This document shows, one piece after another, positions 28,667 through 54,076 of a DNA stretch of 64,000 nucleotides. Source of the DNA: Rhodanobacter sp. C06. GTDB lineage: Bacteria; Pseudomonadota; Gammaproteobacteria; Xanthomonadales; Rhodanobacteraceae. The position numbers and the translations under genes are program-made. The stretch is taken from the NCBI RefSeq assembly GCF_002001105.1, contig NZ_MUNP01000037.1, forward strand, positions 1 to 64,000, read 5' to 3'. Every line of letters begins with the position of its first letter. The first letter of the stretch is position 1. The notes under the pieces are model-generated. The model was given only the letters and a program-made list of their open reading frames with translations, did not search any database and had not been told where the DNA came from.

Positions 28667-29440
28667 TCAGTTGCGGGGAGCGCCCGCCTCGGCCTGCTCG
28701 CGCTCGCCCAGGCGCTGGCCCAGGCGGTCGATGTTGTTGAGCGACAGCAGGTGCGCGTAGATCCAGCCGAGCACGCCCTCGCGCAGGAACTCCTGGGCGG
28801 TCTTCTCGTCGAGCTGGCGCAGCTTCTCCTCGTTCACCACGAACAGGCCGTTGAGGTTGATCACGTGGCCGTCCGCGCTGTCCGGCGCGCCCTTGCGCAG
28901 GCTCATGTTGCGGGCTTCGAGCAGGTTGTGCTTGCGCAGCTGGTCCATGAACCAGCGGGTGCGCGCCACGTGCTGCTGGAACTCGCCAAGGAAACCCACG
29001 GCACGGCTCAGCAGCTCGGTGTCGCTGCCGTCCTCGTTGAACAGGCGGTCGCCCTCGGCGCCGAAGCCTTCGTAGCCCTCGTCGAGGAACACGGCGAAGT
29101 CGTCGCCTTCCTGGCCGGCCGGCTTCTCGGCCAGCACGAACGGATAGCGGCGCACGAAGGCGGGGATGTAGACGTTCGGCGCCCACTGGCCCTCGGCGTC
29201 GACGAACAGGTTCTCGTTCTGGCGCAGGCCCAGCAGCGCCACCGGGCCGGCATCGGCGAGCTCGTTGCCGGCGAACACGATCGGCAGGTCGCGCGCGGCC
29301 AGGCCGAACTCCACGCCGGTCAGCGGCACGGAATGCGCGCCCAGCGCGAACTTCATGTTCGGGATCGGCTTCAGGCGCAGATCCTTGTGGTCGTTGCGGT
29401 TGAGCGGCACCGGGCGCTCGTAGAAAAGAACTTCAGCCAC
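28667..29440 (-). CDS. SapC family protein
   Basis: A 257-residue protein of the SapC family, opening AEVLFYERPVPLNRNDHKDLRLKP and containing FALGAHSVPLTGVEFGLAARDLPIVF and ENLFVDAEGQWAPNVYIPAFVRRYPFVLAE. The name derives from an S-layer-associated Campylobacter gene, but in xanthomonads and caulobacters the members are cytoplasmic, of unknown function, and are often found near TonB-dependent receptors or tryptophan halogenases; neither is nearby. The start is GTG at 29440 with AGAGG eight bases before. The C-terminal 110 residues are helical. Confidence 0.85.
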   Translation of the reverse strand: MAEVLFYERPVPLNRNDHKDLRLKPIPNMKFALGAHSVPLTGVEFGLAARDLPIVFAGNELADAGPVALLGLRQNENLFVDAEGQWAPNVYIPAFVRRYPFVLAEKPAGQEGDDFAVFLDEGYEGFGAEGDRLFNEDGSDTELLSRAVGFLGEFQQHVARTRWFMDQLRKHNLLEARNMSLRKGAPDSADGHVINLNGLFVVNEEKLRQLDEKTAQEFLREGVLGWIYAHLLSLNNIDRLGQRLGEREQAEAGAPRN

Positions 29441-29856
29441 GTGATTTACCTCTGCCCCGCCGTGCCGGGGTTGCCACCATCGGCTTCCCCTCCCAAACCC
29501 GGCGTCGGGTCTACAGATGAACAACCACTATATCAGCGCCCGTGCCCGTCCGCGAATCCCCGGCACGGGATCTATCTGATTGACCGCAAAGAGTTTCGCC
29601 TGCGCACCATCCACAAATGTGTTCTATGCTGCAGCGCATAAGGGAGCGTGGGCGGCAAAAGCCGCTCGGGCTGCAAAGCTCGCTGGGCGGTCCATATTTC
29701 CGCCGTTTCTTGGCCCACAGAACCACTATGGGCCGGCGAATCGGCGAAAATCTGTCCTCGCGCAGCAAGCTTTTCGCCTCGATCGTTTCTGCCGCACACA
29801 CTCCTGGCACCGTTGCATGGCCGCAGCGCTCTTTCTGGTGAGGAAGGACGAACCGC
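29441..29856. other. Intergenic stretch between SapC and HNH genes
   Basis: The 416 bases have no gene. They hold a short 8-bp stem (CCCGTGCC with GGCACGGG) at about 29540-29570, and the 162-bp inverted-repeat element at 29643-29804. Both flanking genes read away from the stretch, so it also contains their promoters, which I cannot place. Confidence 0.6.
29643..29804 (+). mobile_element. 162-bp MITE-like element, copy A
   Basis: A non-coding element bounded by imperfect 20-bp terminal inverted repeats: left GGAGCGTGGGCGGCAAAAGC, and right, read inward, GGAGTGTGTGCGGCAGAAAC (16 of 20 identical). A central near-palindrome GGCCCACAG...CTATGGGCC lies at 29712-29734, 69 and 70 bases from the two ends. 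A second copy of exactly the same length lies reversed at 44228-44389. Outside the ends and the centre, blocks such as AAATCTG and TTTCGCCTCG are shared. It carries no frame of its own. It lies 52 bases upstream of the HNH gene. No obvious target-site duplication was seen. Confidence 0.8.
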
Positions 29857-30456
29857 ATGCTGATGGAAGTCACGAACCGGGCCGACCTGTATTCGACCCG
29901 CGTGCTGTCGCTGGACGCCGCCGGCCGCATCCTGGACTGGATCAGCTGGCAGGACGCCGTGTGCCTCTACGTGCGCGGCGCAGTGGCCTGGACGCTGGGC
30001 GATCCCTGCCTCACCGTGCACGGTGGCCACAACCGCATGCTGGGCGCGCAGAGCCGGCTTGACCTGCATCCCATCGTGGCCAGCACCGGCCACTGCCACG
30101 AGCACGCGATCGACCCCGCCCCCGCGCTCACCAACACCGCGCTGTTTGCCCGCGATCGCCACCTGTGCCTGTATTGCGGCGAGCACTTCAACCGCGGCGA
30201 GCTGACCCGCGACCACGTGCAGCCGGTATCGAAGGGCGGCCGCGACGAATGGGAGAACGTGGTCAGCGCCTGCCTTGCCTGCAATCTCAGGAAGGGCAGC
30301 CGCACCCCGCAGCAGGCGCACATGCCGCTGCTGGCCGTACCCTACCGGCCGAGCTGGGTGGAGCACCTGATCCTGTCCAACCGCAACATCCTGGCCGACC
30401 AGATGGAATTCCTGGTCAGCCACCTGCCGCGCGACCGGCGTCCGCAAGCCGCTTGA
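29857..30456 (+). CDS. HNH endonuclease family protein
   Basis: A 199-residue protein. The HNH domain spans about 96-146: a zinc ribbon CLYCG (Cys 104, 107), the catalytic DH at 119-120 in TRDHVQPVSKGG, Asn 134 in EWENVVSAC, and the second pair Cys 139 and 142 followed by NLRKG. This form resembles the orphan HNH proteins widely conserved in proteobacteria rather than a restriction, phage or CRISPR nuclease. The N-terminal 90 residues are a family-specific domain. The start ATG at 29857 has GAGGAAGG upstream; an ATG two codons later is possible. Confidence 0.88.
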   Translation: MLMEVTNRADLYSTRVLSLDAAGRILDWISWQDAVCLYVRGAVAWTLGDPCLTVHGGHNRMLGAQSRLDLHPIVASTGHCHEHAIDPAPALTNTALFARDRHLCLYCGEHFNRGELTRDHVQPVSKGGRDEWENVVSACLACNLRKGSRTPQQAHMPLLAVPYRPSWVEHLILSNRNILADQMEFLVSHLPRDRRPQAA

Positions 30457-30537
30457 CGGGGCGATGGCGCCCACGCGCCCGGGTTGCGCCCGGCCCCCGC
30501 CCTTGCCGCGCCCCGCCGCTGGCTCAACAATACGCGG

Positions 30538-32430
30538 ATGAAAGATCCTGCACGTTATCCCCATCTGGCGGCCATCGAGGCGCCGGCCGACCTGCGCCGT
30601 GTCCCCGACGAGGAATTGCCCGCTGTCGCCGACGAGCTGCGGCAGTACCTGATCGAGGCCGTGGCCAGCTCCGGCGGTCACTTCGGCGCGGGGCTGGGCG
30701 TGGTGGAACTCACCGTGGCGTTGCACCACGTGTTCGATACGCCCACCGACCGCCTGGTGTGGGACGTGGGCCACCAGTGCTACCCGCACAAGATCCTCAC
30801 CGGCCGGCGCGAGCGCATCACCACGATCAAGAAGAAGGACGGCCTCGCACCGTTCCCGCGCCGCGAGGAGAGCGAGTACGACACGTTCGGCGTCGGCCAC
30901 TCCTCCACCTCGATCTCCGCCGCGCTGGGCATGGCGATCGCCGCGCAGCGCAAGGGCGACCCGCGCAAGGTCGTGGCGGTGATCGGCGACGGCGCGATGA
31001 CCGCCGGCATGGCGTTCGAGGCACTGAACCACGGCGGCGATGTCGAGCCGAACATGCTGGTGGTGTTCAACGACAACGGCATGTCGATCAGCGAGAACGT
31101 AGGCGCGATGACCAAGATGATGTCGCGTGCGCTGGCCAGCCGCCGGCTCAATGCGGTGCGCGAGCGCGCCAAGCGGGCGATCCCGAAGCAGTCCTTCGTG
31201 GGCCGTTTCGTCAAACGCTGGGAGGAACACGCCAAGGGCATGTTCGTGCCGAGCACGCTGTTCGAAGAGCTGGGCTTCCACTACACCGGCCCCATCGACG
31301 GCCACAACATCCCGCAGCTGCTGGCCGCGCTGCGCACGGTGAAGAACCTGCCCGGCCCGCAGCTGCTGCACGTGATCACCACCAAGGGCAAGGGCTACGC
31401 CCCGGCCGAAGAGGCGCAGATCGAGTACCACGCGGTGGGCCCGTTCGATCCGCAGGCCGGCCTGGTCAAGAAAAACGCGCCGGCCAGGCCGACCTACACC
31501 GACATCTTCAGCGACTGGCTGTGCGACCAGGCCGCCGCCGACGAGCGCCTGCTCGGCATCACCCCGGCGATGCGCGAAGGCTCGGGCCTGGTGCGCTTCT
31601 CGAAGGAATACCCCGAGCGCTACTTCGACGTGGCGATCGCCGAGCAGCACGCGGTGACGCTGGCCGCGGGCATGGCCTGCGAAGGTGCCAAGCCGGTGGT
31701 GGCGATCTACTCCACCTTCCTGCAGCGCGCCTACGACCAGGCGATCCACGACGTGGCGCTGCAGAATCTCGACGTCACCTTCGCGATCGACCGCGCCGGC
31801 GTGGTCGGCCCCGATGGCGCCACCCACGCGGGCAGCTTCGACCTGAGCTTCCTGCGCTGCCTGCCGAACTTCGTGATCATGGCGCCGGCCGACGAGAACG
31901 AATGCCGGCAGATGCTCTCGACCGGCTTCCAGCATGCCGGCCCCGCCGCGATCCGCTATCCGCGCGGCACCGGCCCCGGCATCGCGATCCGCCCGCAACT
32001 CGATACCTTGCCGATCGGCAAGGCCGAGCTGCGCCGCCGCGGCCACGGCCTGGCCCTGCTCAGTTTCGGCGCGATGCTGGCGCCCGCCGCGGTGATCGCC
32101 GGCGAGTTGGACGCCACCCTGGTCAACATGCGTTTCGTGAAGCCGCTGGACGAGGCGCTGATCGTGGAACTGGCGAAGAGCCACGACGCCTTCGTGACGC
32201 TGGAAGACAACGCCATCGCCGGCGGCGCCGGCAGCGCGGTGGCCGAATGCCTCGCCGCGCACGGCATCGTCAAGCCGATCCTGCACTTGGGCCTGCCGGA
32301 CGTTTATCTGGAACATGGCAGCCGCGAGGAAGTCCTCAGCATGGCCGGCCTCGACCTGCCCGGCATCCGCCACGCGATCCACGTGCGCTTCCCGCAACTC
32401 GCCGGCAGCAACCTCGCCAGCGCGGGTTAG
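30538..32430 (+). CDS. dxs: 1-deoxy-D-xylulose-5-phosphate synthase
   Basis: A 630-residue enzyme, the usual length. It condenses pyruvate and glyceraldehyde-3-phosphate, using thiamine diphosphate, as the first step of the MEP isoprenoid pathway. Visible are [37 protein letters not shown], the thiamine-diphosphate motif [15 protein letters not shown] followed by FNDNGMSIS, and [19 protein letters not shown] with the catalytic Glu. [15 protein letters not shown] and YPRGTGPG are typical of the C-terminal part. The start [10 protein letters not shown] at 30538 fits the family; no good Shine-Dalgarno is visible. It stands apart from other isoprenoid genes. Confidence 0.97.
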
Positions 32431-32913
32431 CGGCACGGCACCCGCGGCTGCGTCCTCCGCGGACACACGACCTGGCAACGACAATGACGACGGCACATAT
32501 CACGCGCCGCCGCATGCCGATGCGCGCCCTGCACCAAGCTCGACGACAACGGACGCAAGCCCGGGGACAGCATGACTCATCCGCTGGATGACGCCGCACG
32601 ACGCGAGCCAGCCTCAGCAGGTCCGCGGGGCGACCGCGCTCATGAGTCCGATTCGGCCACGAAGCATTCACGTGGATTAACGCGGGCGGACCGCGGCTTT
32701 AATCCAAGCTGACCGAAATCGCGGCCGTTCACGGTCACCTCACCGGTCCCCGCCTATCACTGTATCCGCCTTCGCTCGCCGCGCACGCATGCCGGATCGA
32801 CGCGAAGGCGCCAGCAATCTGCCGGCCCTCGTCATCGACTCGAAATCGACTCGCGGCATCGAACCGATGCCCGCAACGAGGGGCCGCCCCCTTCCCAATT
32901 GCCGGAGGCACTG
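32431..32913. other. Intergenic stretch between dxs and the BON gene
   Basis: About 480 bases with no supported gene. I see no tRNA, riboswitch or terminator in it. It must contain the promoter of the BON gene, but no confident -35/-10 pair stands out. Confidence 0.5.
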
Positions 32914-33252
32914 ATGAAAACCATGACCAGCCTGACCACACTCGCCCTTGCCGCGGCCCTTGGCCTTGGCAGCCTCGCCTCCCCGGCGCAAGCCCAGACA
33001 GCCTCGAGCAGCGAGCACTCGTCGAGCATGGGGCAAGCCGGCAGTGATGCTTGGATCACCACCAAGGTGAAGACGGAACTGGCCACTACCAAGGGCGTGT
33101 CGAGCACCGACATTTCCGTCCAGACCGTCGATGGCGTGGTGACCCTGACCGGCGTGCTTCCCACCAAGGTTGCGGTGAAGAAGGCAGTCGCCGCGGCCCA
33201 GAGCATCAAGGGCGTCAAGAGCGTGGATGACTCCGGCCTCAAGGTGAAGTGA
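32914..33252 (+). CDS. Periplasmic BON-domain protein (OsmY-like)
   Basis: A 112-residue protein. A signal peptide ends at PAQAQ (about 28). The Ser-rich linker TASSSEHSSS follows, and one BON domain occupies about 45-112: DAWITTKVKTELATTKGVSSTDISVQTVDGVVTLTGVLPTKVAVKKAV, then IKGVKSVDDSGLKVK. BON domains bind phospholipid or envelope surfaces and the family is osmotic- or stress-induced. The ATG at 32914 has GGAGG five bases upstream. It leads three small stress-type genes. Confidence 0.92.
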   Translation: MKTMTSLTTLALAAALGLGSLASPAQAQTASSSEHSSSMGQAGSDAWITTKVKTELATTKGVSSTDISVQTVDGVVTLTGVLPTKVAVKKAVAAAQSIKGVKSVDDSGLKVK

Positions 33253-33320
33253 CCCACCACGCCGCGGCACCGTTTGCTGGCAGTCCGCCAGTTTCCCCCT
33301 CCCCACCGAGAGAGACCGAC

Positions 33321-33518
33321 ATGAATGAAGATCGCATCAAGGGACAGTGGAAGCAGCTCCACGGCAAGCTCAAGGCGCGCTGGGGCAAATTGACCGACGA
33401 CGACCTGAAAATCGCCGATGGCACCACCGAATATCTCGCCGGCAAACTGCAGGAACGCTACGGCATCGCCAGGGACGAGGCGCAGAAGCAGATCAAGGAA
33501 TTCGACCGCAACCTGTAA
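33321..33518 (+). CDS. CsbD-family stress protein
   Basis: A 65-residue, highly charged cytoplasmic protein, MNEDRIKGQWKQLHGKLKARWGKLTDDDL at the start and a helical second half (AGKLQERYGIARDEAQKQIKEF). The family is named for a Bacillus sigma-B-controlled gene and is a general stress marker of unknown mechanism. The gene lies 68 bases after the BON gene and is followed by a strong hairpin. Confidence 0.95.
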   Translation: MNEDRIKGQWKQLHGKLKARWGKLTDDDLKIADGTTEYLAGKLQERYGIARDEAQKQIKEFDRNL

Positions 33519-33528
33519 GTACATCCTG

Positions 33529-33562
33529 GCCGCCGGGAGCGGAGGGACCCGCTCCTGGCGGC
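33529..33562 (+). terminator. Strong hairpin after the CsbD gene
   Basis: A 14-bp stem with one G-T pair runs from GCCGCCGGGAGCGG (33529-33542) to CCGCTCCTGGCGGC (33549-33562) around AGGGAC. No T run follows, so it may end or stabilise the BON/CsbD message rather than act as a classic terminator. Confidence 0.6.
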
Positions 33563-33686
33563 AGCGTGCAAATGCAGGACCGCCTCCGCGACAGCATCAG
33601 GCATGCCCAAGGATGCATCGGCTCGCCGCTGCCGCATCACCGAGCGCAACTGGATACCGGTTTGCGCCCCAACATGGGAGAAACCC

Positions 33687-33851
33687 ATGCTCTACTACGC
33701 CATTGTCTTTCTGATCATCGCACTGGTTGCCGGTTTCTTCGGGTTTTTCGGCATCGCCGGCCTCGCCGCGAGCATCGCCAAGATCCTGTTCGTCGTCTTC
33801 ATCATCCTGTTCATCGTGTCGCTGATCTTCGGGCGCCGCCGGCCACTCTGA
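33687..33851 (+). CDS. DUF1328 small membrane protein (YtjA-like)
   Basis: A 54-residue protein made almost wholly of two hydrophobic helices: [20 protein letters not shown] and an [27 protein letters not shown] part, ending RRRPL. This matches DUF1328, the small two-TM family of E. coli YtjA. The function is unknown; it is commonly encoded with CsbD and BON genes in stress clusters, as here. GGGAGAAACCC precedes the ATG. Confidence 0.93.
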
Positions 33852-34217
33852 CGGGAGCGGTTCAGTCCTTGCGATTCGCCGCCCCGACGAATCGCGGAAA
33901 GCCGCCGTGTCCGGCATGCAACCGGAGCGGCGGCTTTCGCATGCCGCAATCTTTCCGCTGAAAATGCCAGGAGGTGGCGGCGATCCGCCGGCGCAATCCG
34001 CCGGCATTCCAGCTGTAGTGCGCGCTTTGACTGTAGCCACGCCGGCATCACGACCCTGCCTGCGCGCTACCCATCCCGGTCGCCGCATCCGGGCGCAAGA
34101 CCAAGGCGTGCACGATCACGGAAAGCGCATCATCGACGCATGATCCATCGCCGTCGCACGGGCAACGATCGCCGGCCCGGCCAGACCCCGCGCGGCCAAA
34201 GGTGCACTCGTCCGGGA
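33852..34217. other. Intergenic stretch after the stress cluster
   Basis: About 366 bases without a gene. The stretch begins with two hairpins (33872-33894 and 33898-33937). The rest, to the end of prmC, shows nothing I can name. Confidence 0.5.
33898..33937 (+). terminator. Probable terminator after the DUF1328 gene
   Basis: AAAGCCGCCG pairs with CGGCGGCTTT around a 20-base loop that itself can pair CCGG with CCGG. The TTT end gives a short U tail. A smaller stem, CGATTCG with CGAATCG, precedes it at 33872-33894. Confidence 0.7.
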
Positions 34218-35045
34218 TCATTCGCCGGTTTTTCCGCCGCTCACCCGATCGCGCGCTTCCAGGTCCTGCGCGGTGAACACCTGCGCATAACCTGCCTCGC
34301 GCAACAGCGCGCGAGCGGCATCGCCCTGGTTCCAGCCGTGCTCGAACAGCAGCCAGCCGCCGGCTTCGAGGTGTGCCGGGGCGTCGGCGATGATGCGGCG
34401 GATGTCATCGAGACCGTCGGCACCGGAGGCCAGCGCCGCGGCCGGTTCGTAACGCAAGTCGCCCCGTGCGAGATGCGGATCGGCCGCCTCGATGTAAGGC
34501 GGGTTGGACACGATCAGCGCGAAGCGCTCGCCCGCCAGCGGCGCCAGCCAGTCGCCTTGGACGAAACGCACGTTGCCGAAGCCCTGCCGTTGCGCGTTGC
34601 GACGCGCCACCGCGAGCGCATCCGCGCTCGCATCCGTGGCGACGACCTGCGCCTGCGGACGCTCGCTGGCGATCGCCAGCGCGATCGCGCCGCTGCCGGT
34701 ACCCAGGTCTGCCACGCGACAAGCCATGTCGCGTGGCAGACGTTCCAGCGCCAGTTCCACCAGCAGTTCGGTCTCCGGGCGCGGGATCAGCGTGGCCGGT
34801 GTCACTTCCAGCTCCAGCGTCCAGAAGCCGCGCCGCCCGGTGAGATAGGCCACCGGCTCGCCGGCTGCACGGCGCGCGACCAGCGCCTCGAAGGTCGCCT
34901 GGACGTCCGTATCCAGCGCATCGTCGGCATGCGCGAACAGCCAGCTGCGCAGCTGTCCGAGCACGTGCAGCAGCAGCGCTTCGGCATCGGCGCGTTCGCC
35001 AAGTCGCGCCGTGGCGGCGACCAGCAGGGTGCGCACGTCAGCCAC
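34218..35045 (-). CDS. prmC: Peptide chain release factor N5-glutamine methyltransferase
   Basis: A 275-residue enzyme that methylates the Gln of the GGQ motif in release factors RF1 and RF2, using S-adenosylmethionine. The N-terminal helical domain (1-85) ends with the [19 protein letters not shown] motif. The Rossmann domain has [16 protein letters not shown] near 110 and the substrate-binding NPPY motif (VSNPPYIEA) near 180. The C-terminal [15 protein letters not shown] is typical. Its start overlaps the end of the giant envelope gene by eight bases. In many proteobacteria prmC is next to prfA or hemK partners, which are absent here. Confidence 0.95.
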
Positions 35046-38000
35046 GTGGCGCCTCCCCCGGCGAGGGCGGCAGCGGCGGCGGTGGCGGTGGCGTCACCGA
35101 TTTCGGCTCGCTTCGATGCCAGTAACCGCCGTGCGTCCATGCGCCGAAGGCCCACTGCAGCCAGCCGATCAGCGCGAACGCCAGCCACAGCGCCCATGCC
35201 AGCATCGCGAGCTTGTACCACCACAGTGACACGCTGAGCACGCCGCTCACGGGCAGCGCGCCGCCGCTCTGGTCGGCGAACCAGCGCAGCCGCCAGGCGT
35301 CGGAGCCGTTGCCGGCCACGTGCATGTCCGGCACGCCGAGCAGGCCCTTGGGCACCGCGGCCACCAGCACGAGCAGCGCCAGCACGGTAAGCAGTGCCAG
35401 CCCGAGCTGCGCGAGGTTGAAGCCTTTCGCTCGCAGCCGCTCCGGTGGCGTCCAGCGCGCGCGCAGGCCGAGCAGGATCAGCCACGCCGCCACCAGCGCA
35501 TACGCACCCCACGCGAACGCGGAGAAGCCCAGGCCCAGCAGCAGCCAGTGGCGGTAGCGCAGCGGCGTGGGCGCGTAACGCGCCAGCAGCCAGGCGACCA
35601 GTAGCAACACCACGAGCTGCGACCAGTACAGCACCGCCGGACCGGTGGTCGGTCCCCAGGTCCACAGCACCCAGCGGTCCTGCGGCAGATCCAGCTCGGT
35701 GGCGATGTTCGCCACCGGCGCCTCCAGCGCGAACGCTGGCGTGCGCGTGCGCGCAGCGATGCCGTGCGGCTCGCGCAGGCGCACGCGGTAGTCGTGTTCA
35801 CTGGGCAGCAGCGGCAGGCCGAGCTTGCCGTTGCGCACGGCGAGGTTCAGCGGCTCGCCGTCGCGGCCGGCCTCCAGCAGTTCGGCGCCGGCCGGCAGCG
35901 TGATCGCGTGCTCGCCGCCGCGCGTGCTGCGCGCCGTGAGCGCGAGCGTGGTTTCGGTGCTGCGCTCACCCACTTTGCTTTGCACGACCACGTTGTCGAA
36001 GGCGAGGCTGCCGCCGCCGACCGCGACCGGCTGGCTGAAACCGAGTTGCAGGGTTTCGCCGGGCAGCGGCTGGAAGCGCAGGCCCGCGTCGCTGGCGCTG
36101 GTCGGCACGCCTTGCGCATCGACGTGCCACATCGGCGCGGCGACGATTTCCCAGACTTCGACGCGCTCGCCCAGCGCGGGCGCCCTGAGCGCGAGCTTCG
36201 CCGCGTGATCCAGCCGGCTCGTCCAGCGCACGGTGTCGCTGCCTGCGTTGAAGGTGACGTCGATGCGGCCGCTCTTCACCAGCGCGCCATCGCCCTGCGG
36301 ATGTTCGCCGGGCAGCAGCGGCAGGCTGAGGCTGAAGCCGCCATTCGCGGGGGCGATGCGTTCGACCGTGTTTTCCACTCGCCAGTCCACGCCCAGCAGC
36401 AGGCGGCGGGTAAGCCGCACGTAGGGCGGGAAGTCCTGCGCGGCCACCGCCGGGCCGCCGTTGTCGGCGACGCGCACGCGTTGCAGCGCGAGGCTGTCGC
36501 CCAGCATGCGTCCGCCGTCCACGCCATCGAGCGACCAGCCCTGCCCGTTGAAGGCCACCCGCTGCGGGCGCAACGCGAAGCGCAGGCTGGCGCTGTCCAC
36601 CGTGCCGATGCGGTAGCGCAGGCCGATGCGATGCACGCCGCGGTCGAGGCGCAGCAGCGCATCGTCGTCGCGGACCAGCGCGGCGGGATGCCCGTCCACG
36701 CTGGCATCGAGCAGTTGCAGCGCGGCGTCGGGCTGCGGCAGCGGCAACGCCACGGTGGCACCCGCGGCCACCTCCAGCGCCACGTCCAGCGTGTCGCCGC
36801 TGGCCTGCAGTTGCGCCTGCGCCACGCTGGCGCAGTCTGGCGCGCACTTTGGCGCTTCGGTGAGGCGGGCCTTCAACTGATCCAGCAGTTGTTGATTCGG
36901 CAAGCTCTGCGCGTGCGAAATCGAAGGCAGCAGCGCGACGGCGAGCAGCAGCGCACCGGCCACACCGGCGCCGCGTGCAGCGGTCCAAGGCAGGCGCCAC
37001 GGGCGCAGGCTGGCGAGCAGTTTCGCCAGCAACGCCGCCAGCAAGGCGACCATCGCCACGCGCAACAGCCGCACCAGCCAGCGCGGCGCGATCAGCAAGC
37101 GCGTGGTTTGCTCCGCAGTCACCGGGCCGGACCAGCCGAGTTGGTAGTCGTTGCCTTGATCCCAGCCCGGCGTGCCCGCGCCGGCCTGGATCGTGCTGCG
37201 GCTGTCGAAGTCGTCGAGGCCGGGACTTTGCAACGCCGTCGCAGTCACGACAACGGAAGAAAGATATTGCTCATTGGTGCGTACGCGTGGCGCCGGCTGC
37301 GCCGGAGCCGCAGGCTCAGCCAGCACCACCGAAGGCGGCGCGGGTGGCGCAGGTGGTGGTGGCGGCACGGCGTTGCTGGAAGCCAACTCCGCCTGTGGTC
37401 GCACTTCCTGCTTGAGTCCCGGGTTATGCATCGCATCCGCAAATTGCACGTATATGGATGCCCCGCCCTCCAACTGCGGATGCAGGGCGTACTGCAATTG
37501 CCGCGCAGCGAACGGCAGGCTCCACAGCACGGCGAGCGCGAACACCGCGATGGCAGCGCCGCGCGCCGCGACACGCAGGCGCCCATCCGGCAAGGCGCGC
37601 AGCAGCAGCGCCAGCAGCAACACCACGGCCAGCGTCCACAGTGGCGCGCCGCTTTCATGGCGGCCCAGCGCGAGATAAAGCGCCGCCAGCAAGGCCCAGC
37701 GCCAACCGAGCAGACGGCCGGCCAGCAAAGCGACCAGCGCGAGCACGAACAGGTCGAGCAGGCTCCATTGCGCCACCCAGGTATCCGGCGCGCGATCCGC
37801 GCCGGGCGCCGCGATCAGGCGATAGCCGAACGGCAGGTGCAGGCTGGCGCTGATGCCTTCCAGCGGCAGTCGCCAGCCGGAACTGGGGATCGCGCCACCG
37901 TGTACGGGCAAGCGCAGGCCAGCGTCGAGATCGAGTTTGCGCGTGCGCAGTTCGACACCGCTGCGGCCGTCGCTGCCCTTGCTGACCAGCAGCGGCGTGC

Positions 38001-39165
38001 CGCCTTCGCTGGCGCGTTGCAGTTGCCACGGCGCGGTCACGTCCAGCCGCTGGTGGTGGCGCAGTTCGCCGCTGAGATGATCGGCCGTGCGCAAGCCGCC
38101 GCCGTCGAAGTCCAGCCACATCTCGCGTTGCAGATGGATCTGGTCGCCCTTGCCGCCTTCGTCGCCGCGTGCGCCGGCGGTGATGGTCAGGCCCGAGCCG
38201 TCGTTCAGCGCGAACGCGGGCAGGTCGCTCCAGTCGCCGGGCACGCCGGCCTGCGCGGCGTCGATGCCCTGCCCTTCCGCGCGGCTGCCGCGCAGCGCGG
38301 GGTCGTCGCGGTAGCTCCAGATTTCCTGCCGCGGCCAAGGCGCGGCGGGCAGTTTCAGCGCCACCTTTTCCAGCGGCGCAATGGCGCGCGCCGTCAACGT
38401 CAGCAGCCAGTGTCCCGGCCGCAGCTGCACGCGCAGGCGGCCGTCGCTTTCAAGCTTGGCCGGCAGGTCGCCGGACAGCGCGGCGGCGACGAAGCCCGCG
38501 GGCAAGGCCGGGCCCAGCACCACTTCGCGCGCGCTGCCGGCCACGTCGAGTTGCAGCTGCGTCAGCAGCATCGCAGGCAGGCCGTCGCCAAGCTCGCGAT
38601 AGACGCGCAGCGACAAGGCATCGGCGACGCGCTGCGCGGCGGCGGCTTCGCCCAGGGTGAGTTCGTCGCCGTTGCGCTCGACGCGCGCCACCGCCGCGCC
38701 GTCCAGGCTGAGCGCGACGAGGCCGATTTCCGTGGGCACGCGCAGGCGTGCGGGCCGCTCCGACCACGGCAGCGTGCCGCGCAACTGGTAGTCACCGGGC
38801 GCCAGCCACAGCATCGGCTGGTCGTCGTGCTGCAGCACCACGGCAGGCTGGTTGTTCGAGGTCACCGCCTGCGGCCAGGCGTGTTCGTCGCCCGGCAGCG
38901 CCACCCAGCCGGGCGCGTCCACGTGTACGTCCAGGCTGAAGGTCGCGCCGTCCTTGCCGGCATCCAGCGCCAGCCGGCCGGGCCAGGCGCACTGGTAGCT
39001 GTCCGCGCCCGGCGACTGGTTGGCGAGGAACGGGCAAGCATGCTGCGGCACGTCGTGCAGCACCCAGCCCTGCCAGTCGCGCAAGGGCGGCGGTACGTCC
39101 TGCGCCGGCAATGGCGCGGCCAGCAGCAGGCACAGACCCAGCAGTGCTATCTGTCGAGCAAGCAT
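35038..39165 (-). CDS. Giant envelope protein of unknown function, 1375 residues
   Basis: A 1375-residue protein I do not recognise. A signal peptide ([22 protein letters not shown]) is followed by a large beta-rich exported part to about 460, with His/Cys near [14 protein letters not shown] cluster of hydrophobic segments lies at about 467-560. A Pro-rich linker with seven prolines follows near 610, then [10 protein letters not shown] near 635. Another TM lies at about 695-715. Near 730-750 a second signal-peptide-like segment ends in SISHAQ and is followed by ECAPDC-type cysteines (KCAPDC) and another beta-rich part. About five C-terminal TMs lie from 1175 on, and a poly-Pro tail ends the protein. 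The repeated order signal, Cys, beta domain suggests two fused ancestral proteins. It overlaps prmC. Confidence 0.8.
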
Positions 39166-39249
39166 GCGTTTCTCCCTGGATGCCGCGCGGCCGGCAACAA
39201 CAAGTAGAACATGCCACCCGCATACCGCGGAACGGCCCGGTCGCTCGGC

Positions 39250-40212
39250 TCAGTCCGACACCGCCAGCACGCACTCGTCGGCGCCGAAGCTGCGGCAGCA
39301 GACCGGGAGGACCGACAGGCTGCGCCGCGCCAGGGCCGGCACTAGCAGGCCTTCGAGGAAGCCACCATAGAAGCCGCAACCGGAATGGCCGTCCCCGGCG
39401 CACAACGCGCTGTGCCGGATATGCAGCTGGCCATCCTGCAGCTCCGCCTCGGCGAAGGCATGCAGCGCCGGCACGGCGAGGGCGGAAAGTGCGGCGGCTA
39501 GCGCGAGTCCGGTGTCCAGCGAATATTCGCGCGCGAACACCCACGCGCCCACGCGCTGGCCGGCCAGTTGCAGCGTGGCGGCGCGCGCCCCCGGCTGCAC
39601 GCCACGATCCAGCGCCAGCAGGCGCGGCAGGATGCGCGGGTATTCCTGCTCCAGCGCTGCCAGCGCTTGTTCGACTGCTGCCTCGTCGGCCGCCAGCTCC
39701 GGCAGTTCGACGTAGGGTTCGGGCTCCGGCTCGGTCGGTGCGGGCGGCGGCGCGGGACGGCGGATCACCAGTTCCTCGAAGGTCTCCGTTTCCGGTGCGG
39801 GCTGCGGAGCCGCCGCGATGGCGACTCCGGCCTCCGCGCTCACGGCCGGCGCGGGCGCGGCATCCTGCTCCGGAACGGGTGCCGGAACGGGTGGCGGCTC
39901 GGGTGGCGGCGCCGGCGGCGGCACGTAGCCGCTGGTGACCTTGCTGGTGGCGGCGAAATGCGTGCGCACCTCGCCCTCGACGGCGGGCGCCAGTTCGAAG
40001 CTGATGAGCCGGTCGCAACCTTCCAGCGCCTGGCGCAACGCGCGCTTTTTGAACCACGAGCCACGCACCACCATGCTCAGCAGCGTGCCATGGGGGTCTT
40101 GCGCCAGGCGCTGCCGCAGCAGGGTGAAGCCATTCGCGGCCGCCAGGCGGCCAACCTCGATGAGCAGGCCCTCGCGTTGCAGCGCGAGCGCCTGGATTTC
40201 CAGCTCGATCAT
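39250..40212 (-). CDS. ACT-like / Pro-rich linker / V4R-like protein
   Basis: A 320-residue protein with no signal peptide. Residues 1-76 look like an ACT-type alpha/beta domain (LLIEVGRLAAANGFTLLRQRL, TLLSMVVRGSW). Residues 95-175 are a low-complexity Pro/Ala/Glu linker. The C-terminal 140 residues end with LCAGDGHSGCGFYGGFLEG and LPVCCRSFGADECVLAV; this spacing of Cys, aromatic and Gly matches the V4R (4-vinyl-reductase-like) small-molecule-binding domain. The linked ligand is unknown, and a regulatory or sensing role is inference. It stands between the giant envelope gene and pepN. Confidence 0.65.
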   Translation of the reverse strand: MIELEIQALALQREGLLIEVGRLAAANGFTLLRQRLAQDPHGTLLSMVVRGSWFKKRALRQALEGCDRLISFELAPAVEGEVRTHFAATSKVTSGYVPPPAPPPEPPPVPAPVPEQDAAPAPAVSAEAGVAIAAAPQPAPETETFEELVIRRPAPPPAPTEPEPEPYVELPELAADEAAVEQALAALEQEYPRILPRLLALDRGVQPGARAATLQLAGQRVGAWVFAREYSLDTGLALAAALSALAVPALHAFAEAELQDGQLHIRHSALCAGDGHSGCGFYGGFLEGLLVPALARRSLSVLPVCCRSFGADECVLAVSD

Positions 40213-40287
40213 CCGTCCCCCTGTAGACGATGTCGGTGCGTTGAATTTCCGCCCATGCTACGACTTGCGTCGGCGGGCCACCACAAA

Positions 40288-40317
40288 CGACAAGCCCCGC
40301 CGCAGCGGGGCTTGTCG
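40288..40317 (-). terminator. Terminator after the M1 aminopeptidase gene
   Basis: CGACAAGCCCCGC pairs perfectly (13 bp) with GCGGGGCTTGTCG around CGCA. On the minus strand the stem is followed by TTTG. It lies 20 bases beyond the aminopeptidase stop. Confidence 0.85.
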
Positions 40318-40336
40318 CATCCATGACTCAAACCGA

Positions 40337-43018
40337 TCAGCGCAGGATCGAAGCCGGCTCCTGCTTGGCCTGCAGCGCCGCGCACAGCTCGATAGCCTCG
40401 GTGGTTTGCGCCAGGCCGCGCGAGATGCCGGCGGCATCGTTCATGCGCGGCTTGAAGAACGCCTGCACGCGCTGCGCCTCGGCGCTGGAGCAGCCGCCGC
40501 CCGCGGCCAGCATCGGCAGGTAGCCGCCGGCGAAGCTGCCGGTGCGCTTGAGGATCTGCGGGTAGTGGCCGGCGAACCAGCTCCACATCGCGTCGCGCTG
40601 GGCCTCGGTGTCGCGACCCGAGCGCAGCAGCGAGGCCATCTCGCCCACCTTGACCGGCTTGCTGATCGCGAAGTCGCGTACCTGCTCGGCGAGCGCGGGG
40701 TCCTCGACGCTGGCCAGGCCGCCGAGAATGCCGTTGCGCAGTGCCGGATCGCTGGTCTGCGGCAGTTCGGCGATCAGCGCATCGACCGCACTCTTGCCCT
40801 GGGTCTGCACCGCCACGCCCAGCGCGTCGCCGAGCAGGTCGGGGTTCGCGGCCGCGAGGTCGAGGCGACCGTCGGCCTTCTTTTTCAGCGCCGCCTCACC
40901 CTGCTGGAGCAGGGCCGCACGCACCGCGGGCAGTTTGTAGTCGAAGGCCAGCGTGGCGGCGAGCGTGCTGCGCAGGAGCGCATCGTCCTCCGACTCGCCA
41001 GCCTTGCGCTGGTAGCCCAGCGCTTCGAGCTTCGGCAGGTAGGCGGCCTTCACCCAGTCCGCGACGCGGGCGCGCTGGACATCGGTCTTCGCCACGTGAT
41101 GGTAGATCCAGCTCACGCGTCCCAGCGGTGCGGTGAACACCTGGCTCGTCTTCGACTGGGTGAGCGGCTTCAGCGCGGCGAGCACTTGGCCGGCATCGAG
41201 ATCGCCATGCTGGAAGCTGGCGCCGATCGCGTCGGCATAGGCCAGCTGCTCGGCATCGCTGAGCTTGGCGACCTCTTTCACCAGCGCGGCCAGCTCGCCC
41301 TTGTCGAGGCTGAAGCGGTAGTAGCCGGCGGCGTTCGCGTTCGGCATCACCCAGGTCGGGTTGCTGGCGCCGGCCAGCACGATGGAGCCGGTCGCCTTGT
41401 CGAGCATGTCGCAGGCCACCTTGCTTCCGTCAGCAGTGCCATAGCGCACGCACACCGGCACGCCCCAGATGCGCGAGGCATCGCCATGGCTGCCCAGCGG
41501 CAGGTAGCGGCTCTGCTTCAGTTCCAGCACGGTCTGGCCGTTCCTGTGCTCCAGCTTCGTCTGCACGTAGGGCACGCCGGACTGGTCGAGGAAGCTCTTG
41601 AACGCGTGCTTGAACGCGTCGCCCTTACCCGCCGCGGTGGCGATCGCGTTGACGAGATCATCCGCGGTGGCGTTGCCGAACTTGTGCGCCTGGATGTAGG
41701 CGCGCATGCCCTTCTGGAACGTCTTGTCGCCCACGTAGTTCTCGAACATGCCGATGACGGCGGCGCCCTTTTGGTAGGTGATGCCGTCGAACGCGGTCTC
41801 GATGTCGCCGTTGCCGGTGATCGGCTGGCGGATCTTGCGCGCGCTGACCAGGCTGTCGTTGCCCATCGCGCCCTGCGCGCCGCGCACGCGGTCGAGGTCG
41901 GCGCGGTATTCGGGATGCACTTCCTCGGTGACTTTCTGCTGCATCCAGGTGGCGAAGGCCTCGTTGAGCCAGATGTCGTTCCACCAGGCCAGCGTCACGG
42001 TGTCGCCGGTCCACTGGTGGGCCAGCTCGTGCGCGGTGACGTTGAAGGAGCCACGCACGTTGCGCGCCGGCGAATCCTTGTCGAGCAGCAGCAGCCAGTC
42101 GCGGAACGTGACCAGGCCCGCGTTCTCCATCGCGCCGGCGGCGAAGTCCGGCGCCGCGAGCACGTCCAGCTTGTCCCACGGATAGCCGAAGCCGTAGTAG
42201 TTCTCCAGCGCGTGGATGATGCTCGGCGTCTCGGAGATCACGTGGCTCATGCGATGCGCCTCGCCGGCGGCGGCGATGCCGCGCAGCGGCAGCGGCTTGC
42301 TGCGGTAGGCGTCGGGCGAGATTTCCGCGGTCGGCGTGATGTCCCACGGGCCCACGGCGAACGCCACCAGATAGGTCGGCAGCGGCAAGGTCGGCGCGAA
42401 GTTCACCGTCTTCCAGCCCTTGCCCGCCGGCTTCTCGCTTACCAGTTGCGTGTTCGCCACCGCGGTGTCGCCTTCCGGCAAGGTGATCGAGATGTCGAAC
42501 GGCGTCTTGAAGCCGGGCTCATCGAAGCTCGGGAAGGCGTAGCGCGCGCTGATCGGTTCCATCTGCGTCATCGCGTAGGGCTGGCCCTTGGCGGTGACCT
42601 TGTACAGGCCCTGCAACTGCGCGTTGAGCGGCGCGGTGTACTCGAACTTCAGCGTGATCTCGCCGGCCGGCAGCGTGCTGCCGAAATCCACGCGCACCAC
42701 GCCCGCCTTCGAATCGGCTTCCACGTACTTCGCGTCATGCGTCTTGCCCGCGGCGTCGGTCACCGTCACCTTCGACACCGTAAGCGAAGCGCCGTCCAGC
42801 CACACGTGGTCGGAGGCCTTGGCCAGCTTCACCTTGATCGTGGTGGTGCCGGAGAAGTCGGTTTGCGCCGGATCCACCTTGAACGCGATCTGGTAGGACT
42901 GCGGCACCGCCCAGGACGGCAGGCGGCCCGTGGGTGCCTGGTCGGCACCGGCGGCGAACGCCAGGCCGCAGCCGGTGGCCAGCGCGGTGAACAGGAGAGG
43001 ACGGACAAGACGACGCAT
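40337..43018 (-). CDS. Exported M1-family zinc aminopeptidase (PepN-like)
   Basis: An 893-residue metallopeptidase with a signal peptide (cleaved near AFAAG, about 23). The exopeptidase motif GAMEN is at about 295-299. The zinc motif HELAHQW is at about 330-336, with the third ligand in WLNEAFA about 18 residues on. The tail beyond 570 is the helical ERAP1-C-like domain (WIYHHVAKTDVQRARVADWV). It removes N-terminal residues from peptides and probably acts in the periplasm, unlike cytosolic E. coli PepN. The gene stands alone, divergent from oxyR. Confidence 0.95.
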   Translation of the reverse strand: MRRLVRPLLFTALATGCGLAFAAGADQAPTGRLPSWAVPQSYQIAFKVDPAQTDFSGTTTIKVKLAKASDHVWLDGASLTVSKVTVTDAAGKTHDAKYVEADSKAGVVRVDFGSTLPAGEITLKFEYTAPLNAQLQGLYKVTAKGQPYAMTQMEPISARYAFPSFDEPGFKTPFDISITLPEGDTAVANTQLVSEKPAGKGWKTVNFAPTLPLPTYLVAFAVGPWDITPTAEISPDAYRSKPLPLRGIAAAGEAHRMSHVISETPSIIHALENYYGFGYPWDKLDVLAAPDFAAGAMENAGLVTFRDWLLLLDKDSPARNVRGSFNVTAHELAHQWTGDTVTLAWWNDIWLNEAFATWMQQKVTEEVHPEYRADLDRVRGAQGAMGNDSLVSARKIRQPITGNGDIETAFDGITYQKGAAVIGMFENYVGDKTFQKGMRAYIQAHKFGNATADDLVNAIATAAGKGDAFKHAFKSFLDQSGVPYVQTKLEHRNGQTVLELKQSRYLPLGSHGDASRIWGVPVCVRYGTADGSKVACDMLDKATGSIVLAGASNPTWVMPNANAAGYYRFSLDKGELAALVKEVAKLSDAEQLAYADAIGASFQHGDLDAGQVLAALKPLTQSKTSQVFTAPLGRVSWIYHHVAKTDVQRARVADWVKAAYLPKLEALGYQRKAGESEDDALLRSTLAATLAFDYKLPAVRAALLQQGEAALKKKADGRLDLAAANPDLLGDALGVAVQTQGKSAVDALIAELPQTSDPALRNGILGGLASVEDPALAEQVRDFAISKPVKVGEMASLLRSGRDTEAQRDAMWSWFAGHYPQILKRTGSFAGGYLPMLAAGGGCSSAEAQRVQAFFKPRMNDAAGISRGLAQTTEAIELCAALQAKQEPASILR

Positions 43019-43155
43019 GAGGGGTTCCCCGGGTGTGTACAGGAACCCGTCACGCTAGGCGGCACATGACTTTCCACACAGTGCCATAAGGCATGTCGAC
43101 GCCGGCGCGGCGCGCGCGCTTGCGTCAAGCGGCTCAATCACTACTATGGGCTTTC

Positions 43156-43170
43156 ATAGTTCACGTCTAT
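43156..43170 (+). promoter_or_regulatory. OxyR-type binding site upstream of oxyR
   Basis: ATAGTTCACGTCTAT matches the OxyR half-element ATAGNTNNNANCTAT at nine of ten defined positions. A further CTAT at 43144-43147 stands eight bases before it, close to the spacing of the full four-contact operator. It ends 13 bases before the oxyR ATG, between oxyR and pepN, so it could mediate autoregulation. Confidence 0.6.
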
Positions 43171-43183
43171 GATGGGGCTCGTC

Positions 43184-44164
43184 ATGAACCTGCGCGACCT
43201 GCACTACCTGGTGGCCCTCGCCGAGCAGCGCCATTTCGGCCGCGCGGCGGAGGCCTGCTTCGTCAGCCAGCCCACCCTGTCCACCCAGATCAAGAAGCTG
43301 GAGGAGGAACTGGGCGTGGCGCTGGTGGAGCGCACGCCGCGCAAGGTGCTGCTCACCGACGTGGGCCGCGAGATCGTGGCGCGCGCGCGCGACGTGCTGA
43401 ACGAGGTGGAGCAGATCAAGGGCATCGCGCGGCGCACGCTGGATCCCGAATCCGGCACGGTGCGGCTGGGCATCTTCCCCACGCTGGGCCCCTACCTGCT
43501 GCCGCACGTGGTGCCGCGGGTGCGCGAGCGCTTCCCGCGGCTGGAACTGCTGCTGGTGGAGGAGAAGACCGAGGAAGTGCTGCGCCGCCTGCGCGAAGGC
43601 CGGCTGGACGCCGGCATTCTCGCCCTGCCGGTGCACGAGGACAGCCTGCATGCGGAATTCCTGTTCGAGGAGCCGTTCGTGCTCGCGGTGCCGCAATCGC
43701 ATCCGCTGGCGCGGCGTCCCTCGCTGAAGCTGGCCGACCTTGGCGACCAGAGCCTGCTGCTGCTGGAGGACGGCCACTGCCTGCGCGACCAGGCGCTGGA
43801 GGTCTGCCACCTCGCCGGCGCGGGCGAGAGGAGCGGCTTCCGCGCCACCAGCCTGGAGACGCTGCGCCAGATGGTGGCCGCCGACGTGGGCATCACCTTG
43901 CTGCCCACGCTGGCGGTGAAGCCGCCGGTGGCGCAGGCGCCGAACGTGCAGCTGATCGAGTTTCGCGGCAGCCATCCACCGAGCCGGCGCATCGCGATGC
44001 TGTGGCGCAAGAGCTCGGCGATGGGCGGCTTCCTCAAGCAGCTTGCCGGCGTGTTCCGCGAACTGCCCAAAGGCCTGCTCGATCCGCACGACGCAGCCAC
44101 GCCGGCGGCCGCGACGGCCACGCCCACGAAGCCGCGTCGCGATAGTCCGAAACGATCGTCCTGA
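43184..44164 (+). CDS. oxyR: Hydrogen-peroxide sensor OxyR (LysR family)
   Basis: A 326-residue LysR regulator. The N-terminal winged helix-turn-helix reads MNLRDLHYLVALAEQRHFGRAA and VSQPTLSTQIKKLEEELGV, matching E. coli OxyR closely. Counting from this ATG, the redox cysteines fall at 199 (EDGHC) and 208 (EVC), the exact E. coli positions, so it is a peroxide-sensing OxyR. Start choice: the ATG at 43184, since upstream ATGs give a non-family extension. The C-terminal tail is Ala/Pro-rich. It precedes the rubrerythrin block, separated by the 162-bp element. Confidence 0.96.
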   Translation: MNLRDLHYLVALAEQRHFGRAAEACFVSQPTLSTQIKKLEEELGVALVERTPRKVLLTDVGREIVARARDVLNEVEQIKGIARRTLDPESGTVRLGIFPTLGPYLLPHVVPRVRERFPRLELLLVEEKTEEVLRRLREGRLDAGILALPVHEDSLHAEFLFEEPFVLAVPQSHPLARRPSLKLADLGDQSLLLLEDGHCLRDQALEVCHLAGAGERSGFRATSLETLRQMVAADVGITLLPTLAVKPPVAQAPNVQLIEFRGSHPPSRRIAMLWRKSSAMGGFLKQLAGVFRELPKGLLDPHDAATPAAATATPTKPRRDSPKRSS

Positions 44165-44227
44165 TAAGCACAATCAATTTCAACGAATCCTCCCGCAGCG
44201 CTAGGCTCGGAACGTAGCGACCGCTCT

Positions 44228-44389
44228 GGAGCGTGGGCGGTAGAAACCAAGCGGGCGAGGCAAAGTCGTTTTGAGGCAGATTTCGTGACGGCTTGCAGGC
44301 CCATAGTGGTTCTATGGGCCAAAAGCCGGCGCGGAAGATGCCCAAAACGGCGCAGCCGCAGCCGCTTGTGTTTCTGCCGCCCATGCTCC
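44228..44389 (-). mobile_element. 162-bp MITE-like element, copy B (inverted)
   Basis: The second copy, exactly 162 bp. Left end GGAGCGTGGGCGGTAGAAAC; right end read inward GGAGCATGGGCGGCAGAAAC (18 of 20 identical). The central near-palindrome at 44298-44320 reads GGCCCATAG...CTATGGGCC and lies 70 and 69 bases from the two ends, the mirror of copy A. It has no coding capacity. It lies 49 bases before the rubrerythrin ATG, inside the oxyR-rubrerythrin gap, and could carry or disrupt that promoter. Confidence 0.8.
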
Positions 44390-44438: not shown

Positions 44439-44858
44439 ATGAGCAAGCTGAAAGGCTCGAAAACCGAGCAGAGTCTGAAAGACGCGTTTGCCGGCGAATC
44501 CATGGCCAACCGCCGTTACCTCTACTTCGCCGCCAAGGCGGACGTGGAGGGCTACAACGACGTTTCCGCCGTGTTCCGTTCCACCGCCGAAGGCGAGACC
44601 GGCCACGCCCATGGCCACCTCGAATACCTGGAACAGTGCGGCGACCCCGCCACCGGCCTGCCGTTCGGCGAGACCCACGCCAACCTCAAGAGCGCGATCG
44701 CCGGCGAGACCCACGAGTACACCGACATGTACCCGGGCATGGCCAAGACCGCGCGCGACGAAGGTTTCGATGAGGTGGCCGACTGGTTCGAGACCCTGGC
44801 CAAGGCCGAGCGCTCGCATGCGAACCGCTTCACCAAGGCGCTGGGCGAAATGGGCTGA
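44439..44858 (+). CDS. Rubrerythrin-family ferritin-like protein
   Basis: A 139-residue ferritin-like diiron protein. The four-helix iron ligands are seen as [43 protein letters not shown] and [11 protein letters not shown]. The C-terminal rubredoxin domain of classical rubrerythrin is missing, so it needs an outside electron donor. Rubrerythrins reduce hydrogen peroxide to water. A strong GAGGTGAT Shine-Dalgarno precedes the ATG. The adjacent Fe-S oxidoreductase is a plausible partner, and OxyR lies just upstream. Confidence 0.93.
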
Positions 44859-54000: not shown

Positions 54001-54076
54001 TGGTGGGTCGTCCGGGACTCGAACCCGGGACCAATGGATTAAAAGTCCAGTGCTCTACCAGCTGAGCTAACGACCC
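54001..54076 (-). tRNA. tRNA-Lys (anticodon TTT)
   Basis: A 76-base tRNA on the minus strand. The acceptor stem GGGTCGT pairs with ACGACCC and CCA is encoded. The D arm is AGCTCAGCTGGTAGAGCA, the anticodon loop is CTTTTAA with TTT, and the T arm carries GGTTCGAGTCC. All parts pair normally. It lies 59 bases after queC and has its own strong terminator. This tRNA, after queC, is a known integration site for genomic islands in Pseudomonas. Confidence 0.97.

What the first reader, a model, noticed from the sequence alone, without database searches (positions are those of the whole stretch)
29643..44389. A pair of 162-bp MITE-like elements in opposite orientation
The sequence at 29643-29804 and the reverse complement of 44228-44389 are both exactly 162 bp. 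Both are bounded by 20-bp imperfect terminal inverted repeats of the form GGAGCGTGGGCGGYAGAAAC (16/20 and 18/20 matches within each copy). Both carry a central near-palindrome GGCCCAYAG...CTATGGGCC whose distances to the two ends are 69/70 and 70/69, as expected for the same element inverted. Internal blocks AAATCTG, TTTTGGCCC and CGCCTCG are shared. Neither copy codes for protein, and each lies about 50 bases before a gene start (HNH, rubrerythrin). This is the pattern of a MITE or a mobile regulatory repeat. I know no named family with these ends.
Basis: partly seen in the sequence, partly recalled or inferred. Interest (0 to 1): 0.78.

Follow-up and report, generated by a model that had tools for sequence, protein, structure and literature searches.

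The report
Order-wide palindromic mobile repeat (MITE)
The two matching DNA stretches are copies of a small, gene-free jumping element about 162 letters long that folds into one long hairpin, occurs in many bacteria of the same order, and in most copies ends in the same sequence as a known class of transposons that probably moves it.

Summary
In detail: both copies exist, both are 162 bp, and they are 58% identical (94/162). They belong to a large family. This genome has 7 copies; a profile matches 59 of 299 genomes sampled from the order (27 of 85 genera), mostly near 162 bp. Each copy is one imperfect hairpin: 39 of 53 pairs show compensatory changes, and again 39 of 53 in 18 distant copies. 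Copies move: site 1 is empty in 13 of 13 other same-genus genomes holding the locus, and near relative G207 lacks 6 of 7 sites. Empty sites show CTAG-like 4-mers, but the two flanking 4-mers often differ. The commonest end type matches the ends of IS1182-family insertion sequences: 6 of 9 loci examined carry it at both ends. So this is a non-autonomous palindromic MITE, most likely moved by an IS1182-family transposase. That step is inferred: the window copies carry a variant end for which no transposase was found. Effects on the HNH and rubrerythrin genes are untested. Nine literature searches listed no description of it.

The parts
29643..29804 (+). Element copy 1 (162 bp, end type A), in the divergent gap between the SapC-domain gene (28667-29440, -) and the HNH gene (29857-30456, +); empty in the 13 other same-genus genomes that hold the locus
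29643..29662 (+). Left terminal inverted repeat of copy 1
29785..29804 (-). Right terminal inverted repeat of copy 1
29712..29734 (+). Central stem-loop of copy 1 (GGCCCACAG-AACCA-CTATGGGCC)
44228..44389 (-). Element copy 2 (162 bp, type A ends, variant arms here called type C), between the LysR-type regulator gene (43169-44164, +) and the rubrerythrin gene (44439-44858, +); also present at the same place in G197, empty in 5 other same-genus genomes
44370..44389 (-). Left terminal inverted repeat of copy 2 (in element orientation)
44228..44247 (+). Right terminal inverted repeat of copy 2 (in element orientation)
44298..44320 (-). Central stem-loop of copy 2 (GGCCCATAG-AACCA-CTATGGGCC)

Best explanation
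A non-autonomous palindromic transposable element (a MITE) of about 162 bp. The whole element is one imperfect inverted repeat with a short loop (mostly AACCA in the genus) and ends of the form CTAGGAGC...GCTCCTAG. Shown: many copies, species-specific presence and absence at clean sites, CTAG-like 4-mers at empty sites, and, for the commonest end type, ends shared with IS1182-family insertion sequences. Inferred: an IS1182-family transposase acting in trans cuts at the ends and inserts the element at CTAG-like 4-mers, mostly between genes. Also inferred: the two arms stay complementary because the transposase, or copying across the hairpin, works on both arms as a pair.
For: Seven copies in the genome. 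31 of 233 family genomes hold the exact core. 59 of 299 order genomes match the model (40 of 244 among the better assemblies). Of 87 copies whose two ends could be located among 113 distinct ones, 63 are exactly 162 bp and 84 lie within 161-164. Hairpin: 94.2% of cells paired, 278 double-changed cells against a shuffled mean of 92.0, and sliding by one column gives 43.5-43.6% paired; repeated in 18 copies from other families, 91.0% and 189 against 65.0 (that alignment was fitted to the model). Empty sites: site 1 in 13 of 13 genomes, site 2 in 5 of 6; C55, C11, C9 and C29 empty in each of the 3, 4, 4 and 4 relatives aligned. Targets seen: CTAG at C11 in 4 of 4 relatives, CTGG at C55 in 3 of 3. 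IS1182 link: a 1538-bp element in L370/L383 with CTAGCAGCCTGTCGGACT at both ends and a 454-aa protein scoring 363 bits against the IS1182 equivalog cut-off of 270. Ends CTAGSAGYCTGTCGGRC also bound elements of Mesorhizobium, Aromatoleum (ISAzo2), Polaromonas, Methylobacter and Marinobacter; their proteins are 56-67% identical to the L370 protein, two of the five are annotated as IS1182, and the Polaromonas reading that I gave held a stop. A published IS1182 element has a 4-bp repeat (table row seen in passages of PMC3281130), and ISPsy36 (IS1182) targets GGCC repeats (passage of PMC8027508).
Against: The window copies have type A ends (GGAGCGTGGGCGGYAGAAA), and two scans of viral contigs with type A patterns found nothing. 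Exact left-right identity is no better than shuffles in type A (4 of 37, p 0.86) or type B (24 of 51, p 0.16) and weakly so over all 101 (32 against 26.6, p 0.044); by matched letters the p values are 0.056, 0.20 and 0.0095. A typical MITE does not hold its length and arm pairing this tightly (recalled).
Confidence: 0.8

Rival explanations
1. A structured RNA or regulatory hairpin kept by the host: the element is transcribed in the leader or tail of neighbouring genes and selection on RNA folding maintains the pairs and the length.
For: Compensatory changes throughout the stem; strong folds, z = -5.8 (as RNA, copy 1) and -7.8 (as DNA, copy 2); a length near 162 bp across the order. Site 1 lies just downstream of a conserved TCTATGCT (10 of 10 relatives printed, recounted), so it could be in the HNH leader (inference).
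Against: Sites are not conserved between near relatives, so no particular gene depends on it. Gene contexts are mixed: 59 co-directional, 31 divergent, 18 convergent. No Rfam family at the gathering threshold. No sigma-70-like promoter near either copy, and the one terminator-like site (29811-29828) lies outside the element and is within chance.
Confidence: 0.1
2. A REPIN-like element moved by a REP-associated tyrosine transposase (RAYT).
For: Hairpin-forming inverted doublet, intergenic; ends read TAGGAGC, like the GTAGGAGC heads of Xanthomonas REPs (table seen in passages of PMC2817692).
Against: Type B ends match IS1182 elements over 17-18 bp. Single 30-nt ends fold little better than shuffled ones (mean -7.36 against -6.09 for type A, -7.90 against -7.58 for type B), so each end is not a clear palindrome of its own. 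The element is far longer than a 20-40 bp REP (size from the abstract of PMC3733652).
Confidence: 0.05
3. A site-specific recombination cassette: integration joins a 4-bp overlap carried by the element to a CTAG-like target, so one flank is the target's and the other the donor's (as with coupling sequences of conjugative transposons; that comparison is recalled).
For: At C55 the empty site is CTGG in 3 of 3 relatives; the filled site has CTGG on the right but TCGG on the left, although the other bases printed beside the junction match G207. C9 behaves alike: CTGG in 2 of 4 relatives and on the right, GAAG on the left.
Against: At C11 and at two G207 sites (L174, L176) neither flank equals the target seen in the relative. 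The matching insertion sequences encode DDE-type transposases.
Confidence: 0.05

Closest known systems
IS1182-family insertion sequences, ISAzo2-like
   Same: Terminal repeats CTAGSAGYCTGTCGGRC at both ends in 6 of 9 loci examined, as in type B copies of the element; a 4-bp target is reported for the family (passages).
   Different: 1.5-1.6 kb with a transposase gene. By eye, similarity to the 162-bp element stops after the terminal repeat. The window copies have a variant of this end.
ERIC sequences (enterobacterial intergenic palindromes)
   Same: Spread over related families, mostly intergenic, treated as a MITE (section of the review PMC10969869); a palindrome of 127 bp (recalled).
   Different: Different length and host order. 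Not compared by alignment here.
REPINs / RAYT elements
   Same: Hairpin-forming inverted doublets proposed to be moved in trans (passages of PMC3116915).
   Different: Type B ends belong to IS1182 elements, and the element is longer.

Membership tests
MITE (non-autonomous inverted-repeat element) | Under 500 bp, terminal inverted repeats, no coding capacity | tested here: met
MITE (non-autonomous inverted-repeat element) | Multiple copies and empty sites in relatives | tested here: met
MITE (non-autonomous inverted-repeat element) | Target-site duplication | tested here: inconclusive
   CTAG-like 4-mers at empty sites, but flanks differ at 19 of 40 positions in 10 copies; shuffle tests weak or negative
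MITE (non-autonomous inverted-repeat element) | Ends shared with an autonomous element | tested here: met
   Met for type B copies; not found for the type A ends of the window copies
IS1182 family (as a derivative) | IS1182-type terminal repeats | tested here: met
   Type B copies only, not the window copies
IS1182 family (as a derivative) | Mobilised by the transposase | not testable with these tools
REPIN/RAYT | Each end a short palindrome of its own (REP) | tested here: not met
   Single 30-nt ends fold little better than shuffled ones
REPIN/RAYT | Linked RAYT gene | not tested
   No search for RAYT genes was made
Rfam RNA family | Reaches the gathering score of a curated family | tested here: not met
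   In the window only a tRNA at 54004-54076 matched

The most novel reading that the evidence does not exclude
An ancient order-wide MITE whose arms are kept complementary by copying across its own hairpin, and which has changed its terminal repeats as a matched pair, so that one conserved body has been served by different transposases. Hints: a 26-bp insert sits in one arm or, at mirror positions, in both arms, and the left-arm insert carries one neighbouring base that is the right arm's. The body of copy 1 (type A) is nearest to a type B body (94% alike), and L006 (A) and L007 (B) in this genome are 94% alike. Against it: 92 of 100 copies have a nearest body of their own end type, and a single type A group is not rejected.
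Probability: 0.25. Interest if true: 0.65.

Novelty: new member of a known kind. Interest (0 to 1): 0.42.

Why it matters
It defines a repeat family spread through a bacterial order, with a covariance model and a candidate mobilising transposase. It offers a natural case in which to ask why a mobile hairpin keeps both its length and its pairing over long times, and it should help to annotate unexplained intergenic repeats and some assembly breaks in these genomes.

Tried and rejected
Plasmid and phage records: no similar DNA with a type B copy; with copy 1 only a chance-like 28-bp match in plasmids. A scan for terminal repeats in 10 genomes gave no insertion-sequence-sized pair among the listed places, judged by eye; the listing was cut. 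In all loci held, pairs 300-6000 bp apart were six rows: four show one place with two neighbouring copies, one is a poor match (L090), one is the IS1182 element (L370). Repeated swapping of end types: 7 changes on the body tree, but one clade for type A is not rejected (p-AU 0.199; 100 copies; 6 type C copies left out; 22 of 128 distinct copies had been dropped as untyped, recounted). Type A patterns in viral contigs: none. Core-motif hits L068 and L128 lack the element's arms and were left out of the alignments. Literature searches (listings only unless said); ISfinder could not be searched. Passages were seen of PMC3733652, PMC2817692, PMC8027508, PMC3281130, PMC6053426 and PMC3116915; the outline and sections 4 and 7 were read of PMC10969869.

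Full report
Observation. Both stretches are present and are 162 bp each. They match at 94 of 162 positions without gaps, against 71 for the best place outside the two copies. End and centre motifs exceed shuffles, though the patterns were written from the copies.

Family. The centre with up to 3 mismatches found five places in this genome. A covariance model from 34 copies, both window copies among them (alignment, model), found seven: C5:29641, C5:44226, C55, C3, C9, C29 and C11, each hit on both strands (14 matches). In the same genus 9 of 15 genomes match; one (G196) has 63 strand-wise matches. Its contig lengths agree with Rhodanobacter glycinis MO64 (compare). The exact 19-base core occurs in 31 of 233 family genomes and in 108 stretches of the species-wide collection, 80 of them listed: Rhodanobacter, Dyella, Dokdonella, Frateuria, Pseudoxanthomonas spadix, several loosely named MAGs and one Alcaligenaceae record. 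Over the order, 59 of 299 sampled genomes and 27 of 85 genera match; only 9 candidates per genome were scored, so copy counts are lower bounds, and the model's E-values are rough. The 20 copies fetched from other families are 163-167 bases long and all match again.

Anatomy. The element is one long imperfect hairpin. RNAalifold gave 53 pairs, 39 with compensatory changes. On the same alignment 94.2% of cells pair, against 78.5% in shuffles and 34-44% when the partner is slid by 1-3 columns. In 18 of the 20 copies from other families, not used for the model but aligned to it, the figures are 91.0% against 71.1%. Single-strand folds of the two window copies are far more stable than shuffles. Palindromy applies to DNA as well as RNA, so this does not by itself show an RNA function. 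Among 87 copies whose ends could be located (of 113 distinct), 63 measure exactly 162 bp.

End types. Type A, GGAGCGTGGGCGGYAGAAA, is that of both window copies. Type B is CTAGGAGCCTGTCGGACTT. Type C has A ends with different arms (window copy 2). Of 128 distinct copies 106 could be typed, 56 B, 44 A and 6 C, and 22 could not. Intermediate ends occur in other families (L355, L361-L363). Bodies of A and B copies can be very alike, but 92 of 100 copies have a nearest body of their own type and a tree does not reject a single A group, so repeated end swapping is not established.

Movement. Site 1 is filled only here and empty in 13 of 13 other same-genus genomes that hold the locus; site 2 is filled here and in G197 and empty in five others. 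C3 is shared with G207. C55, C11, C9 and C29 are empty in the 3, 4, 4 and 4 relatives aligned, G207 among them each time. Three G207 copies tested are empty in this genome, the third (L175) on a poorer alignment. Thus G207 shares 1 of the 7 sites. Relatives show CTAG (C11, 4 of 4), CTGG (C55, 3 of 3; C9, 2 of 4) or less clear 4-mers at the target. The two flanking 4-mers of filled sites differ at 19 of 40 positions over ten copies. Left-right identity over 101 copies is weakly above shuffles (p 0.044 by exact match, 0.0095 by letters) and not significant within type A or type B. Decay, error during insertion or a donor-carried overlap could explain this; I could not decide.

Transposase. Scanning viral contigs for type B ends gave 18 stretches. 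One, L370, has two inverted ends 1.5 kb apart around a 454-residue protein that passes the IS1182 equivalog cut-off, 363 against 270 bits, and carries DDE transposase domains. Nine loci with this kind of transposase were inspected: the one above, a partial viral one, and seven plasmid ones. Six have CTAGSAGYCTGTCGGRC at both ends, two have the end once within 2 mismatches, and one shows none. By eye, similarity to the 162-bp element ends with the terminal repeat, which suits a MITE that shares only its ends. A published IS1182 element has a 4-bp repeat and ISPsy36 targets GGCC, in keeping with a 4-bp palindromic target.

Context. With a home-made gene finder trained on the window, 108 of 111 copies lie between gene models, 1 inside one and 2 could not be placed. 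The median distance is 88 bases to a gene start (121 cases) and 18 to a gene end (95 cases). Copy 1 lies in the divergent gap SapC/HNH; copy 2 lies between a LysR-type regulator and rubrerythrin. An effect on these genes is possible but untested.

Verdict. A new family of palindromic MITEs, spread through the order, with IS1182-type ends in its commonest type. The kind is known (MITE, ERIC-like); the family was not described in what the nine literature searches listed. The fixed length, the arm pairing and the mismatched flanks are the parts worth study.

Noticed in passing
L320, L321, L322, L323 (G196) and L079 (Pseudoxanthomonas spadix): A 26-bp insert (GACCAGCTTCGCTGTTRTGAAGCKCT) sits in the left arm (L320), the right arm (L321, L322, and elsewhere in L079) or both arms at mirror positions (L323). 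G196 has 8 places within 2 mismatches, 5 of them in these four copies.
   Followed up: partly
L339, L041, L062: Copies placed next to another element end, with CTAG-like letters at the joint.
   Followed up: no
L337 and L338 (G168): Short forms with the same type B ends, about 57 and 101 bp.
   Followed up: no
L150: A copy interrupted at the central stem by an inverted pair of repeats containing CGTCATCC-like heads.
   Followed up: no
L076 (record titled Alcaligenaceae bacterium CAII-56): A full type A copy in a record named as a betaproteobacterium; transfer, contamination or misnaming not examined.
   Followed up: no
L128 and L068: The 19-base core occurs in other gammaproteobacterial MAGs without the element's arms, twice within about 140 bp in L128.
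   Followed up: no
L178 and L179, upstream of the HNH gene: Two relatives carry another insert of about 50 bp in the same gap that holds copy 1 here.
   Followed up: no
viral contigs L365-L381: Of 11 stretches that are whole contigs, 10 have the element end within about 105 bases of a contig end, as if high copy number broke the assembly.
   Followed up: no
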